Counted from the stretch's first letter, positions 2,906 to 10,287 are shown. The stretch is DNA of 64,000 bases from Clostridia bacterium (GCA_017534305.1 JAFWCU010000001.1:62001-126000); one strand, 5' to 3'. Program-made: numbers and translations. Notes: a model not told the origin generated them from the letters alone.

Positions 2906-2927
2906 TAATATAAGAGAGGTTTTGATT

Positions 2928-3602
2928 ATGAAAAAGAAGATGATATTAACAGCTATATTAGTTATGGTGATTGGAATTTGTACATTTAATACAGTTAATG
3001 CTGCATATGAAGTGCAATCAGAAAAACTTCCAATTAAAACTATTATTAATTTAGTAGATGATGATAGTGAAGAAAAAGAAAATGTTGTACTTGAAAATGA
3101 GACTTTTAACTATGTATTAACACCATTAACAGAAGGTGCACCATTACCAGCTGGTAGTCAAGATGGAAGATGGAATATAAGTGTTAAAGGAGACTATAGA
3201 GATTATTTTATTGATTCAATAAAATTTATTAGACCTGGAATATATGAATATAAATTTGAGCAAATACCTGGTACAAATGAAGATATTCAATATGATAATA
3301 TGGTATATAAGTTAATTTATGATGTTTCAAATAATGAAACATATGATTCTTTAGTATGTAAAGTTATAATTACAGATGAAGAAGAAAACTATAAATATGA
3401 AGATGTGTTATATACAAATCTTTATACTAGCTCAGAAGTACCAGTAGATCCAGATCCACATGAAGATCCAGAACCAAAACCAGAACCTGTTCCAGAAGAA
3501 AAAATAGATACATCAGATATTAATGTTCTATTATATGTTGCTATATTTGTGGGTTCTGCTTACGTAATAACTAGAAAAATTAAATCTAAAAAAGAAAATT
3601 AA
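2928..3602 (+). CDS. Secreted, membrane-anchored protein with an FctA/Spy0128-like pilin isopeptide domain
   Basis: 224 residues from ATG 2928 (AGAGG at 2915-2919). A signal peptide of about 26 residues ends at VNAAYE. The mature part, with LTPLTEGAPLPAG, FIRPGIYEYKFEQIPG and YDNMVYKLIYDVS, matches the pattern of streptococcal pilin isopeptide-linkage domains (F-Y-x-L-P-x-APLP, GxYxYxIxE, YDxxxYxV). A Pro/Glu-rich linker follows (PDPHEDPEPKPEPVPEE), then IDTSD, a hydrophobic segment and a basic tail. The tail has the layout of a sortase signal but no LPXTG. No sortase or second pilin gene is adjacent, so it may be a monomeric surface protein. The domain call is by pattern, not by search. Confidence 0.65.
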   Translation: MKKKMILTAILVMVIGICTFNTVNAAYEVQSEKLPIKTIINLVDDDSEEKENVVLENETFNYVLTPLTEGAPLPAGSQDGRWNISVKGDYRDYFIDSIKFIRPGIYEYKFEQIPGTNEDIQYDNMVYKLIYDVSNNETYDSLVCKVIITDEEENYKYEDVLYTNLYTSSEVPVDPDPHEDPEPKPEPVPEEKIDTSDINVLLYVAIFVGSAYVITRKIKSKKEN

Positions 3603-5217: not shown

Positions 5218-5979
5218 ATGGCAACAAACGAAAAAACAAATGATGAAATAAAAACTGAAGAACAAATGGGATGGTATACACTTGAAGATGCCTTTGAAGG
5301 TATGAAAGATCTTGAAAGAAAAACAGGAAAAAAAGTTGAAATAACTTTTAATGGAAAAGCCTTAAATTCAGATATGAGTTTTGAAGAGGCTGAAAAGGCT
5401 GTTGTAGGTGAAACTGCTAAAGAACATTATGAAAGAATTAAAGATAAACCAGAAGACGAAAGAAATCCGTTAGATAAACAATTTATTGAAAATTATGAAT
5501 CTGGAGCTTTTGATTATGAATACATATCTGTAGATGAATATATGGTTTTAGACGATAAACTAGATTACATGAAGAAGAAATCTGAAGAAACTGGAATGAA
5601 ATATTATTGTAAACATAATGGTAAAGCTGTTAAATCAGATTATGATATAAAAAGAGCTATGATGGCAGTTAATGGTTGGACTGAAAAAGAATATGATGAG
5701 ATCGAAAAACAAGTTCAAGAACAGACTGAAAAACTAAAAAAAGAGCTTGAAAAACAAGAAATAGAAGCAACTGGACTTACTCCAGAAGAATATGAAGCTG
5801 CCAAAAAAAGAGCTGAAGAAAGAACAAAGAGAATTGAAGCTGTTGAAAATAATAAAAGAGAAAGAGATAATCTAAAAGATCAAGTTAATACTTTGAGTTA
5901 TCAATTAGAAGTAAAAAGGGATGATTTAGAAAATCTTAATAAAGAAGAACAAGAGATAGATAAAAAAGCCATTGAGTAA
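5218..5979 (+). CDS. Unknown cytoplasmic protein with an internal duplication and a coiled-coil tail
   Basis: 253 residues, no signal peptide, strong GGGAGG ribosome-binding site. Two related segments can be aligned by eye: KVEITFNGKALNSDMSFEEA (about 39-58) with EKAVVGETAKEHYE after it, and KYYCKHNGKAVKSDYDIKRA (about 127-146) with MMAVNGWTEKEYDE after it. Each has an NGKA-x-x-SD core followed by an acidic helix. From about residue 160 the protein is a long Glu/Lys-rich coiled coil. I do not recognise the family. It probably forms an operon with the next gene, which also ends in a coiled coil, and possibly with the secreted dockerin proteins beyond. Confidence 0.75.
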   Translation: MATNEKTNDEIKTEEQMGWYTLEDAFEGMKDLERKTGKKVEITFNGKALNSDMSFEEAEKAVVGETAKEHYERIKDKPEDERNPLDKQFIENYESGAFDYEYISVDEYMVLDDKLDYMKKKSEETGMKYYCKHNGKAVKSDYDIKRAMMAVNGWTEKEYDEIEKQVQEQTEKLKKELEKQEIEATGLTPEEYEAAKKRAEERTKRIEAVENNKRERDNLKDQVNTLSYQLEVKRDDLENLNKEEQEIDKKAIE

Positions 5980-5993
5980 AGAGGTGAAGCAAA

Positions 5994-6329
5994 ATGAATT
6001 TTTTCAAAAGAATGATTGAACGAATAAAAAGCTTTTTTAAAAAGGAAGAATTGATTATGCTTCCCGAAGTTGAAGAAGTAAATGAAGTTAAAGATGCTCA
6101 AGAAGAAAAAGAAGATGTTATAAAACCAAACATTTTTGATATTGAGTTATTACAAAGAAAATATGAAAATAACATAGTTTCACTAGATGAATTAACAGAT
6201 GAAGAACTTGAAATGTTAAATGATTTATATGTAAGTCAAATTGAGAAACTTAGAGTTATTAAGCAAGATAAAGAAAATCAATTAACTGAAATTGAAAATA
6301 AAATAAATAAGAAAAAAGCTGTTGTTTAG
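5994..6329 (+). CDS. Unknown small coiled-coil protein
   Basis: 111 residues; AGAGGTG precedes the ATG. The N-terminus (MNFFKRMIERIKSFFKKEE) is a basic amphipathic helix that could associate with the membrane surface. An acidic stretch follows. The C-terminal 60 residues (LLQRKYENNIVSLDELTDEE onward) are a predicted coiled coil ending in a Lys-rich tail. The gene starts 14 bp after the preceding one and ends 19 bp before the first dockerin gene. No family is recognised; partnership with the preceding protein through the coiled coils is only a guess. Confidence 0.65.
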   Translation: MNFFKRMIERIKSFFKKEELIMLPEVEEVNEVKDAQEEKEDVIKPNIFDIELLQRKYENNIVSLDELTDEELEMLNDLYVSQIEKLRVIKQDKENQLTEIENKINKKKAVV

Positions 6330-6348: not shown

Positions 6349-7833
6349 ATGAAAATAAGTAGTAAATTAAGGAGAATTAGTGCATTTGTTGCTTGTGCTG
6401 TGCTTCTTGGAACTCATGTGAGCTTAGCAAGTACATTTAATTATAAAGACCACATAACATCGCTTCACACAAAGCAAGAAATAGAGCAAAAGTATAATGC
6501 ATCAGTAGATAGCAATTATCCGGAAAATGAATATAGTGTAAAGCCAAATTATCCTTCTACTGTTGGAAGTCTTAAACAAGTTGTAATAAATGATACATTA
6601 AGCAGAATTAATTATTATAGATGGTTATCTGGACTTAATGAATTAACACCAAATTATGATAAAATGCAAAGAAATCAAAAGGGTGCAATTCTACTTAATG
6701 AATTAGGACAACTTACTCATACTCCTGAGAAACCAGAAGGAATGAGTGATGAGTTTTACAATGAAGGATTTGCGGCATGTTATTATGGAACAGAACCAGG
6801 AGATGTATATTCTGGAAATGTTGCTTATGATAACTTCCATTCATTACCAGATTTAATAGATTTATACATAGCAGATATATACAACGGAGATACATCAAAT
6901 GGTGCGGTTGGACATAGACTTAGTATTCTAGATCCTTTTGGAACTAAAGCAAGCCTTGGAAAATGTGGAAACTTTTCTACATTGTCAATATATTATGAAT
7001 CTTCTGCAGAAGCGTATAATGCAGTGTCACCAGTAAAGTTGGATGTTCAACCATATTATGCATATCCTACAGCTGGATATTTTCCAAAACAATTCTGCTA
7101 TACTAATGAATATTGGTCAGTACTAGTGCCAGGAGGATATTATTTAAAGAGCAGTAAAATAGCTGTTACAATTGAATATGATGGGCAACAATATAGAGTT
7201 CCTTATGTTCAAGAAAGATCGTTTTTTGCTATAGATTTTAAACTACCAGACATTTTAATTAATAGACTTGGTGGACCAAACAAAACAATGCCAGAAGGAG
7301 ACTTTAAAGTAATTGTTACAGGATTTAAGATACCTGGTAATTCATATATGAATTTAGAGTATACAGTTAGCTTCTTTGATGCAGATATTCCAATCACAGA
7401 AATATATTTTGAAGAAGATAGTTATAATATTGAAGTTGGACAAGAAGCAAAAATTGAGCTTTTCTATAGTCCTGCAGCTGCTGATGTTGAAGATAACGAA
7501 ATAGTATGGACTATAGCAGATGAAAGTATTGCTTCAATTGATAGTGATGGAGTAGTAACAGCAAAAAGACCAGGTACTACTACAGCTTCAGTAACAATTC
7601 AAGGAATAACTAAGACATGCGATATAATTGTTTACGGAGATCCTGTTTATGAGCTTGGTGATGTAGATAGAAACAACATTATAGATGCAAATGATGCTAC
7701 TTATGTTTTAGAACTATATAAAGCTGCAAATTATTCACAAGATGATTTAACTCTTGGAGATTTAGATTTTAATAATATATTAGACTCTAATGATGCGTCT
7801 TTAATATTAGAATTGTATAAAACACGTGAATAA
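6349..7833 (+). CDS. Secreted CAP-domain protein with BIG2 and type I dockerin
   Basis: 494 residues. A signal peptide (MKISSKLRRISAFVACAVLL...LAS) leads into a CAP/SCP-like domain at about 75-225, seen from RINYYRWLSGLNELT, a conserved LTHTP and NGAVGHRLSILDPF. A bacterial Ig-like group 2 domain follows at about 350-425 (SYNIEVGQEAKIEL, IASIDSDGVVTAKRPGT). The C-terminus is a type I dockerin with two EF-hand-like calcium loops, GDVDRNNIIDANDATYVLEL and GDLDFNNILDSNDASLILEL. Dockerins bind cohesins of a scaffold or of the cell wall. The role of bacterial CAP domains is mostly unknown. A paralogue with the same order lies directly downstream. No LPXTG or membrane anchor is present, so attachment would depend on the dockerin. 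Confidence 0.85.
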   Translation: MKISSKLRRISAFVACAVLLGTHVSLASTFNYKDHITSLHTKQEIEQKYNASVDSNYPENEYSVKPNYPSTVGSLKQVVINDTLSRINYYRWLSGLNELTPNYDKMQRNQKGAILLNELGQLTHTPEKPEGMSDEFYNEGFAACYYGTEPGDVYSGNVAYDNFHSLPDLIDLYIADIYNGDTSNGAVGHRLSILDPFGTKASLGKCGNFSTLSIYYESSAEAYNAVSPVKLDVQPYYAYPTAGYFPKQFCYTNEYWSVLVPGGYYLKSSKIAVTIEYDGQQYRVPYVQERSFFAIDFKLPDILINRLGGPNKTMPEGDFKVIVTGFKIPGNSYMNLEYTVSFFDADIPITEIYFEEDSYNIEVGQEAKIELFYSPAAADVEDNEIVWTIADESIASIDSDGVVTAKRPGTTTASVTIQGITKTCDIIVYGDPVYELGDVDRNNIIDANDATYVLELYKAANYSQDDLTLGDLDFNNILDSNDASLILELYKTRE

Positions 7834-7836
7834 TAG

Positions 7837-7863
7837 ATAGCAGGAAGTTCCTGCTATTTATTT
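7837..7863 (+). terminator. Hairpin between the two CAP-dockerin genes
   Basis: Perfect nine-base-pair stem 7837-7845 / 7849-7857 with a three-base loop, followed by a short T-rich stretch. Possibly only a partial terminator, since the next gene is 30 bp away and no clear promoter was seen between them. Confidence 0.6.
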
Positions 7864-7892
7864 CCGGTTATTATATTATTGGAGGGAATTAT

Positions 7893-9389
7893 ATGAAAAA
7901 AATAAACTTTTTAAAGGCTTTTGCTTTGGTGATATTTTGTTCACTTTTATTAAATATTAGCAATGTTTTTGCTCAAGATTATTTATTCAATGAGAATGAA
8001 ATAACTGAAGCTCATACTAAAAAAGAAATAATTCAAAAAATGAATGATATTATTAAGTACAATTATAATAATAGTGAATATGCTGTTAATCCAAGTATAA
8101 AAGCTCCTTATGCTGCAGGAAGCTTGCAACAAGGGGTAATACAAGATACTTTAAGAAGTATTAACTTTTATAGATGGCTTGTTGGTTTAAATCCAGTTAC
8201 AGTAAAATATGATAAAATGGAAAGAAACCAAAAAGGTGCTGTAGTACTTGCAGCAAATAGGGTTTTATCACATACTCCAACAAAGCCTGCAGATATGGAT
8301 GAAGCTTTTTATCAAGAAGCATTTGCTGGATGTTATTTTGGTGCAACTCCTGGAGATTACTATTCAGGAAATGTTTCTTTAGATTCAAGTATAATGCCAA
8401 AAATAATTGATGGATATATTAGTGATATATATAATGCAAATACATCAAATGGAGCAGTAGGACATAGAAATAGTATTTTAGATCCTCTTGCATATTCTGC
8501 AAGTTTTGGTAAAGCAGGGTCATATTCTACACTTTCTGTATATTATGCTTTAAGTATAGCTCAATATAATTCACTTTCACAAAATGAATTTGTAGTTGAA
8601 CCATTCTTTGCATATCCAAGCTCTGGAAATTTCCCAAGATCATTGTTTAGAGCAAATGAATGTTGGTCAGTATTATTTATATATTCAGCAGAATATTCAA
8701 GTTCAATGAAAGCAACATTTGAATATAACGGAAAACAATATGTTGCTGATCAATTTATGAAAGAAGGATCTGAACCTATAGTAAGCTTTAAAATGCCTGC
8801 TGCTTTAATTAGAGATTTAGGAATAAGCAATAGTTCTAAAATGCCTGCTTGCAGCATTAGAGTTAAAGTTGAAGGATATAAAGTTGAAGATGGACAATCT
8901 AATGTTACTTTAGATTATACAGTTAATTTCTTTGATGAAAATAATATAGTTAATGATTTTACTTTAAGTCAAACAACTATTACATTAGAACAAGGAGAAA
9001 GCACAACAGTACCTTTAACACTTTTACCTTCTGGTGCAGTAGCAGATAGTATAGTTTGGTCTACAGAAGATACACATTATATTAGAGTAAGTGAAGATGG
9101 AACAATTAGAGCTATTAGACCAGGAACTGCGACTGTTAAAGTAAATGTTGATGGAATAGAAAAAACTATCACTGTTAATATTTCTGGAAACACTAATTTT
9201 CTTCTTGGAGATTTAGACAGAAATGGTGTAGTTGACGCAAATGATGCTTCAATTGCGCTTGAGTTATATAAATCTACAACTGGAGAGTTTGATGTTGAAG
9301 ATATACTACGTGGAGATTTAGATAATAATGATTTAATAGATGCAAATGATGCTTCATTAATACTAGAATTATATAAAACAAATAATTAG
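7893..9389 (+). CDS. Secreted CAP-domain protein with BIG2 and type I dockerin (paralogue)
   Basis: 498 residues with the same order as the gene before it: signal peptide (...LLNISNVFAQDYLF), CAP-like domain (RSINFYRWLVGLNPVT, LSHTPTKPADM, NGAVGHRNSILDPL), BIG2 domain (TITLEQGESTTVPLTL, RVSEDGTIRAIRPGT) and a dockerin pair (GDLDRNGVVDANDASIALEL and a second loop). The two proteins are clearly related over their whole length yet differ at many positions, so the duplication is not recent. The last 25 residues are identical to those of the next gene. A GGAGG site precedes the ATG. Loss of the dockerin would leave no visible means of attachment. Confidence 0.85.
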   Translation: MKKINFLKAFALVIFCSLLLNISNVFAQDYLFNENEITEAHTKKEIIQKMNDIIKYNYNNSEYAVNPSIKAPYAAGSLQQGVIQDTLRSINFYRWLVGLNPVTVKYDKMERNQKGAVVLAANRVLSHTPTKPADMDEAFYQEAFAGCYFGATPGDYYSGNVSLDSSIMPKIIDGYISDIYNANTSNGAVGHRNSILDPLAYSASFGKAGSYSTLSVYYALSIAQYNSLSQNEFVVEPFFAYPSSGNFPRSLFRANECWSVLFIYSAEYSSSMKATFEYNGKQYVADQFMKEGSEPIVSFKMPAALIRDLGISNSSKMPACSIRVKVEGYKVEDGQSNVTLDYTVNFFDENNIVNDFTLSQTTITLEQGESTTVPLTLLPSGAVADSIVWSTEDTHYIRVSEDGTIRAIRPGTATVKVNVDGIEKTITVNISGNTNFLLGDLDRNGVVDANDASIALELYKSTTGEFDVEDILRGDLDNNDLIDANDASLILELYKTNN

Positions 9390-9406: not shown

Positions 9407-10255
9407 ATGAATAGTAAAAAACTAAAGATGATATTTGGTGGAACTATACTTGCAAGTGCTATAGTGTTAAATAGTGTTAATGCTGTGGTTACAAGCAGTA
9501 CATTTTTAAAAGGAGATGTAAATAGAGACACAAAAATTACATTAGATGATTGTGAATTAATTAAGGAACATATAATGGAAGAAGTAACACTAGATGAAGA
9601 ACAATTATATCTAGCTGATGTAGATGGAGAAAATGGTATAACAGCTGCAGATTATGTTAAACTAAAAAACTATATTGAGGGAAGATCATATAGATTTTTA
9701 ATAGGTGATGTATCTAGAGATGGAAAAATAACTCAAGATGATGCAGATGTTTTATATGATCATATAAGTGAAACCAATTTACTAGATGGTGAGCAATCTT
9801 ATCTTGCGGATATATTCGAAGATGGTAAAGCAAATGGTAAAGATTATATTAGACTATTAGAAATTTTAAATGGTACATACAAAAGATATGAAATGGGTGA
9901 TGTTAATAGAGATGGTAAACTAACTCAAGAAGATGCAGATGATATTATGAAATATTATACTGGCAAAATTTCTTTTGATGATGAACAAAAAATTTTAGGT
10001 GACGTTGATGGTGATGAAAGAATAAATGCTCGTGATGCAAAATTGGTACTACAACAAATTGTTGCCAATACGCCTAAAGGAGACTTAGATTATAATGGCG
10101 TTGTAGATGCAAATGATGCTTCTGTTGCACTAGAATTATATAAATCACAAACTGCGACATCTGCTGATATTGCAGTTGGAGATTTAGATAATAATGATTT
10201 AATTGATGCTAATGATGCATCTTTAATACTTGAGTTATATAAAACAAATAATTAA
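9407..10255 (+). CDS. Secreted protein made of four tandem dockerin modules
   Basis: 282 residues: a signal peptide of about 27 residues and then eight EF-hand-like repeats, which pair into four dockerins. The loops start GDVNRDTKITLDD, ADVDGENGITAAD, GDVSRDGKITQDD, ADIFEDGKANGKD, GDVNRDGKLTQED, GDVDGDERINARD, GDLDYNGVVDAND and GDLDNNDLIDAND. The fourth loop is degenerate and may not bind calcium well. There is no catalytic domain. The last module is nearly the same as the dockerins of the two CAP proteins upstream, and the gene follows 17 bp after the second of them. A multidockerin protein could cross-link several cohesins, acting as an adaptor; that is inference. Confidence 0.88.
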   Translation: MNSKKLKMIFGGTILASAIVLNSVNAVVTSSTFLKGDVNRDTKITLDDCELIKEHIMEEVTLDEEQLYLADVDGENGITAADYVKLKNYIEGRSYRFLIGDVSRDGKITQDDADVLYDHISETNLLDGEQSYLADIFEDGKANGKDYIRLLEILNGTYKRYEMGDVNRDGKLTQEDADDIMKYYTGKISFDDEQKILGDVDGDERINARDAKLVLQQIVANTPKGDLDYNGVVDANDASVALELYKSQTATSADIAVGDLDNNDLIDANDASLILELYKTNN

Positions 10256-10261
10256 AGATTT

Positions 10262-10287
10262 GTGGTAGCTTAGGCTGCCACTTTTTT
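10262..10287 (+). terminator. Terminator of the dockerin cluster
   Basis: Eight-base-pair stem 10262-10269 / 10274-10281 with one G-T pair, four-base loop, six Ts. Confidence 0.88.

What the first reader, a model, noticed from the sequence alone, without database searches (positions are those of the whole stretch)
6349..9389. Two paralogous secreted CAP-BIG2-dockerin proteins
CAP domains joined to dockerins are unusual: dockerins are best known on plant-fibre enzymes, whereas CAP proteins are linked to host interaction, lipid binding or proteolysis. The two genes keep the same domain order but have diverged, so both have probably been maintained. There is no enzyme for polysaccharide degradation nearby, suggesting a non-cellulosomal use of the cohesin-dockerin bond.
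Basis: partly seen in the sequence, partly recalled or inferred. Interest (0 to 1): 0.68.

Follow-up and report, generated by a model that had tools for sequence, protein, structure and literature searches.

The report
Dockerin-tagged CAP proteins displayed on cells
A small-genome, uncultured, gut-type Clostridia bacterium appears to use the cohesin-dockerin 'plug and socket', best known from fibre-digesting cellulosomes, to hold about two dozen secreted proteins (CAP proteins, a protease, a lysozyme, adhesin-like proteins) on or near its cell wall.

Summary
In detail: window 6349-7833 and 7893-9389 encode two secreted paralogues (45% identical) built signal peptide-CAP-Ig-Big_2-dockerin. The sister species keeps all three genes under purifying selection. 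The genome has about 25 dockerin proteins, including five CAP proteins, a subtilase, a GH25 lysozyme, a transglutaminase, an LRR protein and InlB-repeat proteins. None carries a plant-polysaccharide enzyme and GH5 is absent. It also has cohesins: a cohesin-Big_2-dockerin protein, a 198-aa cohesin-dockerin protein, a membrane-bound one, and a weak one on a wall-anchored (PETGD) stalk beside another CAP-dockerin gene. Across 36 family genomes, CAP genes occur only where cohesins occur (17 of 17). Relatives repeatedly put CAP-dockerin next to a sortase-anchored cohesin stalk; more distant relatives carry SLH repeats in place of the dockerin. In every genome tested the CAP dockerins resemble that genome's other dockerins (72%) more than CAP dockerins elsewhere (38%), as expected of a shared receptor. 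Best reading: a non-cellulosomal surface-display system whose most frequent recognisable cargo is CAP proteins. Binding and CAP function are untested.

The parts
6349..7833 (+). CAP1: signal peptide, CAP plus Ig-like region (aa 43-344), Big_2 (aa 352-428), C-terminal dockerin (aa 436-490)
6475..7380 (+). CAP plus Ig-like region of CAP1; invariant His124 (6718-6720) and His189 (6913-6915)
7402..7632 (+). Big_2 domain of CAP1
   Evidence: Pfam PF02368 7e-7
7654..7818 (+). dockerin of CAP1, two calcium-loop repeats
7837..7857 (.). 9-bp inverted repeat between CAP1 and CAP2 (possible attenuator or RNA-processing site)
7893..9389 (+). CAP2: same architecture as CAP1
8022..8936 (+). CAP plus Ig-like region of CAP2
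8958..9182 (+). Big_2 domain of CAP2
   Evidence: Pfam PF02368 5e-10
9204..9374 (+). dockerin of CAP2
9407..10255 (+). poly-dockerin protein: signal peptide plus four tandem dockerins, no other recognisable domain
   Evidence: Pfam PF00404 8e-26 over the protein
9509..10060 (+). three dockerins of divergent recognition type (9509-9676, 9701-9868, 9893-10060)
10076..10240 (+). fourth dockerin, carrying the genome-wide common code (AN / LE / K)
10262..10281 (+). intrinsic-terminator-like hairpin followed by a T run, likely operon end

Best explanation
The two CAP proteins and the poly-dockerin protein are cargo and assembly parts of a non-cellulosomal cohesin-dockerin display system. Proteins are exported by their signal peptides. 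Their near-identical C-terminal dockerins act as a common tag and plug into cohesins. Some cohesins are held at the cell: one on a sortase-type (PETGD) Big_2 stalk (own genome C28, L031:8820-11336) and one with a membrane helix (own genome C10, L033:5802-7430). Others are soluble adaptors that end in a dockerin themselves (cohesin-Big_2-dockerin at C25, 198-aa cohesin-dockerin at C28). The poly-dockerin protein, with three divergent dockerins and one common one, probably bridges two cohesin specificities or cross-links adaptors. The payload is mostly surface-acting rather than fibre-degrading: five CAP proteins, a subtilase, a GH25 lysozyme, a transglutaminase, an LRR protein and InlB-repeat proteins. 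Shown by sequence: architectures, synteny, co-occurrence, and per-genome homogenisation of the dockerin. Inferred: actual binding, stoichiometry, the anchoring chemistry, and the role of CAP (in the window pair more likely a binding or adhesion module than a typical CAP active site).
For: (1) Own genome: 13 PF00404 hits at the default cut-off, about 25 dockerin proteins in all, and cohesin PF00963 at 2e-14 plus weaker ones. (2) 22 dockerins on mostly unrelated proteins share the same putative recognition residues in both repeats (one or two single exceptions) and end about 4 aa from the C-terminus. (3) 38 of 38 CAP dockerins are closer to non-CAP dockerins of their own genome (mean 72%) than to CAP dockerins of other genomes (mean 38%). 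CAP paralogues within a genome: CAP 30%, dockerin 73% identical; reciprocal-best CAP orthologues between genomes: CAP 63%, dockerin 46%. (4) Co-occurrence in 36 family genomes: CAP with cohesin 17/0/5/14, Fisher p 3e-6; CAP with at least 5 dockerin hits 16/1/0/19, p 2e-9. (5) Synteny: CAP-dockerin beside a PxTGD-anchored cohesin/Big_2 stalk, in several loci with a sortase (L043/L101, L104, L107, L108, L078, L069, L071, L080, L126, L128), and in the own genome at C28. (6) Relatives have CAP-Big_2-SLHx3, or a CAP-like region with ChW repeats, in place of the dockerin. (7) No GH5 and no plant-polysaccharide GH among the dockerin proteins. (8) Seven sortase hits in the genome.
Against: No cohesin-dockerin complex could be modelled or measured. 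The cohesin on the own genome's wall-anchored stalk is below Pfam's cut-off (19.1 against 24.1 bits) and is not hit by the session's cohesin model; it rests on orthology (L080 ortholog, 35% identity; cohesin model hits in L069, L071 and L080). The assembly is a MAG with 6.85% contamination, though the window's own contig also carries a cohesin, other dockerins and a sortase. Homogenised dockerins could partly reflect gene conversion or duplication, and in most relatives the non-CAP comparison dockerins come from nearby loci. Fisher tests ignore phylogeny.
Confidence: 0.72

Rival explanations
1. It is a divergent cellulosome- or mucinolysome-like glycan-degrading complex, and the CAP proteins are minor accessories.
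For: Cohesin-dockerin complexes of known function mostly carry glycan-degrading enzymes; mucinolysomes occur in gut MAGs and include dockerin-bearing peptidases (PMC12997984); R. flavefaciens cellulosomes include transglutaminase- and LRR-dockerin proteins (PMC2930009).
Against: Of the dockerin proteins, only one carries a recognised glycoside hydrolase (a GH25 lysozyme); no GH5 in the genome; no multi-cohesin scaffoldin found; CAP proteins are the most frequent recognisable cargo and track the system across genomes.
Confidence: 0.1
2. A secreted, cell-free multi-protein complex: pairwise cohesin-dockerin joining of secreted proteins, as in C. perfringens, without cell-wall anchoring.
For: The strongest own-genome cohesin (C25) and the 198-aa cohesin-dockerin protein have no anchor; C. 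perfringens precedent described in PMC12997984.
Against: Adjacent sortase-anchored cohesin stalks in about ten relative loci and in the own genome; SLH- or ChW-bearing versions of related CAP proteins; sortases in the genome.
Confidence: 0.13
3. The dockerin-like ends do not bind cohesins at all and are calcium-stabilised caps or spacers.
For: Dockerin score is below Pfam's cut-off in CAP1 and CAP2; dockerin-like modules without known partners exist (established knowledge, not tested here).
Against: Cohesins are in the same genome and always co-occur with these CAP genes in the family; per-genome homogenisation of the dockerin, including the putative recognition residues, is not expected of a mere cap.
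Confidence: 0.05

Closest known systems
Cellulosome of Ruminococcus flavefaciens FD-1 (sortase-anchored; group 4 dockerins on LRR and transglutaminase proteins)
   Same: Cohesin-dockerin logic, sortase-anchored cohesin, many non-CAZyme dockerin proteins (transglutaminase, LRR, unknown); its authors suggested that some of these may structure the cell surface (PMC2930009; sortase anchoring in PMC11557425).
   Different: There the non-CAZyme set sits beside a large fibre-degrading machinery. Here no plant-polysaccharide enzyme was found among the dockerin proteins, no multi-cohesin scaffoldin was seen, and CAP is the most frequent recognisable cargo. The passages read of that paper do not mention CAP; 'SCP' does not occur in it.
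Mucinolysome of Limousia (PMC12997984)
   Same: Cellulosome-like system in gut MAGs, wall-anchoring cohesin protein, dockerin-bearing peptidases.
   Different: Limousia carries 12 dockerin-CAZymes for mucin in one MAG and multi-cohesin scaffoldins; neither was seen here.
Clostridium perfringens cohesin (X82)-dockerin complexes (Adams 2008, as cited in PMC12997984)
   Same: Non-cellulosomal, single cohesins rather than multi-cohesin scaffoldins.
   Different: There the cohesins sit on glycoside hydrolases; here on Big_2 stalks or small adaptors.
Bacterial CAP (PF00188) surface proteins with SLH repeats
   Same: Same CAP-Big_2 order; relatives of the window proteins in the same order carry SLHx3.
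   Different: Attachment by SLH instead of dockerin; some of those SLH-type CAPs match PF00188 directly, the window pair does not.

Membership tests
Type I dockerin (PF00404) | Two tandem calcium-loop/helix repeats at the protein end | tested here: met
   Both repeats keep the calcium-loop residues in CAP1, CAP2 and gene 3's last dockerin; three helices at pLDDT about 74-91; matches to solved dockerins. Pfam cut-off passed by gene 3, not by CAP1 or CAP2 alone.
Type I dockerin (PF00404) | Calcium-dependent high-affinity binding to a cohesin | not testable with these tools
   No complex prediction or binding data; cohesins are present in the genome.
CAP superfamily (PF00188) | Sequence match to the CAP domain | tested here: inconclusive
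   Window pair not hit; 20 of 30 aligned members of the same domain family hit PF00188, best 2e-8. Membership is by transitive homology.
CAP superfamily (PF00188) | Conserved His/Glu cleft residues | tested here: not met
   Two His invariant in 30 of 30, but the Glu of the GEN motif is replaced in the window sub-group (SGN, NAN, NGN). AlphaFold model too uncertain in this region to look for a substitute.
Cellulosome | Dockerin-bearing plant-polysaccharide hydrolases | tested here: not met
   None among the dockerin proteins scanned; no GH5 in the genome. GH48 and GH9 not searched genome-wide.
Cellulosome | Scaffoldin with multiple cohesins | tested here: not met
   Cohesin proteins found in the own genome and in the fetched relative loci each carry one cohesin.
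Sortase-anchored cohesin protein | Cohesin plus LPXTG-like motif, hydrophobic helix and basic tail | tested here: met
   Met in relatives: L043 (SPTTGD; cohesin PF00963 6e-11), L069 and L071 (IPETGD), L080 (APETGD). The own-genome ortholog L031:8820-11336 has APETGD, a hydrophobic stretch and a KKILVK tail, but only a weak cohesin (19.1 bits).

The most novel reading that the evidence does not exclude
A surface-protein display system of gut Clostridia that uses the cohesin-dockerin bond instead of SLH, ChW or direct sortase attachment. It has an inverted scaffold: poly-dockerin proteins and cohesin-dockerin adaptors replace the classical multi-cohesin scaffoldin. Its main purpose is to build an adhesive or host-facing coat in which CAP proteins are the signature cargo.
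Probability: 0.4. Interest if true: 0.82.

Novelty: new variant of a known kind. Interest (0 to 1): 0.68.

Why it matters
Cohesin-dockerin systems are almost always discussed as glycan-degrading machines; a 2010 study only speculated that some dockerins organise the cell surface (PMC2930009). Here is a genus-wide system with no plant-fibre enzymes found among its cargo in the genome examined, in genomes of 1.1-2.1 Mb, where the bond looks like a general surface-attachment tag. That makes the speculation directly testable with a handful of purified domains. It also offers many naturally diverged, species-specific cohesin-dockerin pairs, and a place to ask what bacterial CAP domains do.

Tried and rejected
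AlphaFold of CAP1 with nine sequences: Big_2 and dockerin good, much of the CAP region pLDDT about 25-50, so no structural proof of the cleft; the listed Foldseek matches on it were mostly Ig-like proteins, none CAP. AlphaFold of a relative's cohesin-dockerin protein (L040): dockerin good, cohesin poor. PDB profile searches with CAP-only alignments found no CAP structure. First cohesin/dockerin alignment misaligned the cohesins and was discarded. One region request exceeded the size limit. Plasmid search: one distant Paenibacillus match (26%), not pursued. Rfam found nothing in the region. Literature: no paper in the library holds dockerin, cohesin and 'CAP domain' together; a broader search listed only CAP papers without dockerins; a lineage-name search gave nothing relevant. 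Cellulosome reading considered and rejected for lack of fibre enzymes.

Full report
Check of the observation. The two genes lie exactly where stated and have the stated order: signal peptide, CAP-like region, Big_2, dockerin. They are 45% identical over their full length. A third gene, 9407-10255, begins 17 bases after the stop of CAP2 and consists of a signal peptide and four tandem dockerins. A terminator-like hairpin lies just behind it. The sister species keeps all three in the same order (L039). dN/dS is 0.13, 0.11 and 0.21 for the three genes, so they are under purifying selection. Two sub-threshold points are worth stating. The dockerins of CAP1 and CAP2 do not reach Pfam's cut-off. The CAP domain of the pair is not hit by PF00188 at all. 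The dockerin identity rests on calcium-loop residues, profile matches to solved dockerins and a confident predicted fold. The CAP identity rests on an alignment of 30 members, 20 of which hit PF00188, best 2e-8.

The genome. The window lies on contig C10 of a 1.6-Mb MAG (96.6% complete, 6.85% contaminated). Pfam's dockerin model gives 13 hits at its default threshold; searching with CAP1 and then with its dockerin gives about 25 dockerin proteins. Twelve of them lie between C28:2.4 kb and 31.6 kb. In 22 proteins the dockerin ends about four residues from the C-terminus and has the same putative recognition residues (AN at 10-11, LE at 17-18, K at 21) in both repeats, with single exceptions such as SN in CAP1. 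That these positions are the recognition residues is taken from established work on type I dockerins. Other codes are found in the first three dockerins of gene 3, in a transglutaminase with an N-terminal dockerin, and in a Big_2 protein at C10:9.5-11.8 kb. Cargo by Pfam and the session's models: CAP in five proteins (two in the window; L029 3752-8254 and 8449-10749; L031 4884-8762), subtilase S8, GH25, transglutaminase, LRR_5, InlB/List_Bact repeats, SpaA, and several proteins with no informative hit. No plant-polysaccharide hydrolase appears among them, and GH5 is absent from the genome.

Cohesins. PF00963 hits the own genome at 2e-14 (C25, cohesin-Big_2x2-dockerin) and more weakly elsewhere. 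Seven sortase hits are present.

Relatives. In L043 the order is cohesin-Big_2x9 with SPHTGD anchor, CAP-Big_2-dockerin, cohesin with SPTTGD anchor, sortase. Similar sets recur in L104, L107, L108, L078, L069, L071, L080, L126 and L128, some without a sortase in the fetched stretch. The small cohesin-dockerin gene adjoins or lies close to the CAP-dockerin gene in L040, L064, L065, L066 and L067, in most of these with a poly-dockerin gene nearby. Across 36 genomes of the family, all 17 genomes with this CAP domain have cohesins, against 5 of 19 without it (p 3e-6), and 16 of 17 have at least five dockerin hits against 0 of 19 (p 2e-9). These tests ignore shared ancestry.

Shared-receptor signature. 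If all dockerin proteins of a genome use the same cohesins, their dockerins should resemble each other more than they resemble those on orthologous proteins elsewhere. This holds in 38 of 38 CAP proteins tested (means 72% and 38%). CAP paralogues within a genome are 30% identical in the CAP region but 73% in the dockerin (35 of 35 pairs). Reciprocal-best CAP orthologues between genomes (CAP at least 50% identical) average 63% in CAP but 46% in dockerin, the dockerin being lower in 99 of 120 pairs. Gene conversion or duplication could contribute, and in most relatives the comparison dockerins come from near the CAP gene; in the own genome they come from several contigs.

Module swap. In another family of the same order, the same CAP domain occurs with Big_2 and three SLH repeats (L103, L105, L106, L116); a weakly matching CAP region occurs with ChW repeats (L117). 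SLH is an established cell-surface attachment module. The dockerin therefore occupies the attachment slot.

Mechanism. The best-supported reading is surface display: export, docking of the common C-terminal dockerin onto wall- or membrane-held cohesins directly or through cohesin-dockerin adaptors, and bridging by the poly-dockerin protein. Architecture, synteny, co-occurrence and homogenisation are shown; binding, anchoring and the role of the poly-dockerin are inferred. For CAP itself, two His are invariant but the 'GEN' Glu is lost in the window's sub-group, so a binding or structural role is more likely there than a classical CAP cleft activity; this is a weak inference.

Compared with what is known. 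It works like a cellulosome's attachment logic but fails the cellulosome's defining tests (no dockerin-bearing fibre enzymes found, no multi-cohesin scaffoldin found). The nearest precedents are the non-CAZyme dockerin proteins of R. flavefaciens, for which a surface-structuring role was only suggested (PMC2930009), the Limousia mucinolysome (PMC12997984), and C. perfringens pairwise complexes (described there). No paper combining dockerin, cohesin and CAP domain was found in the library searched; that library lacks most subscription journals. Taxonomy: related records are titled uncultured Clostridia or Clostridiaceae MAGs, several with 'Lapin' (rabbit) isolate names; the gut habitat of the window's own genome is inferred from these.

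Noticed in passing
window 2922-3602: FctA/Spy0128-like isopeptide pilin-type protein with a C-terminal hydrophobic stretch (PF12892); similar pilin-like proteins and a sortase lie at the end of contig C10 (L035).
   Followed up: no
L030:11642-19294 (own genome C28:31.6-39.3 kb): GH94 protein beside a 1858-aa ORF next to the dockerin cluster; together they look like a cyclic beta-glucan synthase (recalled resemblance, not tested for the long ORF).
   Followed up: no
window 5218-6329: Two small proteins without a Pfam family (253 and 111 aa) directly upstream of CAP1, conserved in the sister species (L039); possibly the start of the same operon.
   Followed up: partly
L033:3531-5792 (own genome C10:9.5-11.8 kb): Protein with Big_2x2 and a different, asymmetric dockerin, next to a membrane-anchored cohesin gene; a dockerin hit in a frame of about 750 aa recurs in many genomes of the family, possibly an older, separate cohesin-dockerin pair.
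   Followed up: partly
L102, L111, L112: CAP proteins ending in three repeats of about 45 aa (type KYPDLKKAFGNDYEKAYEHFIENGIKEGRQGS); no Pfam family matched in the one scanned (L102:9243-11783); perhaps an undescribed surface-attachment repeat.
   Followed up: no
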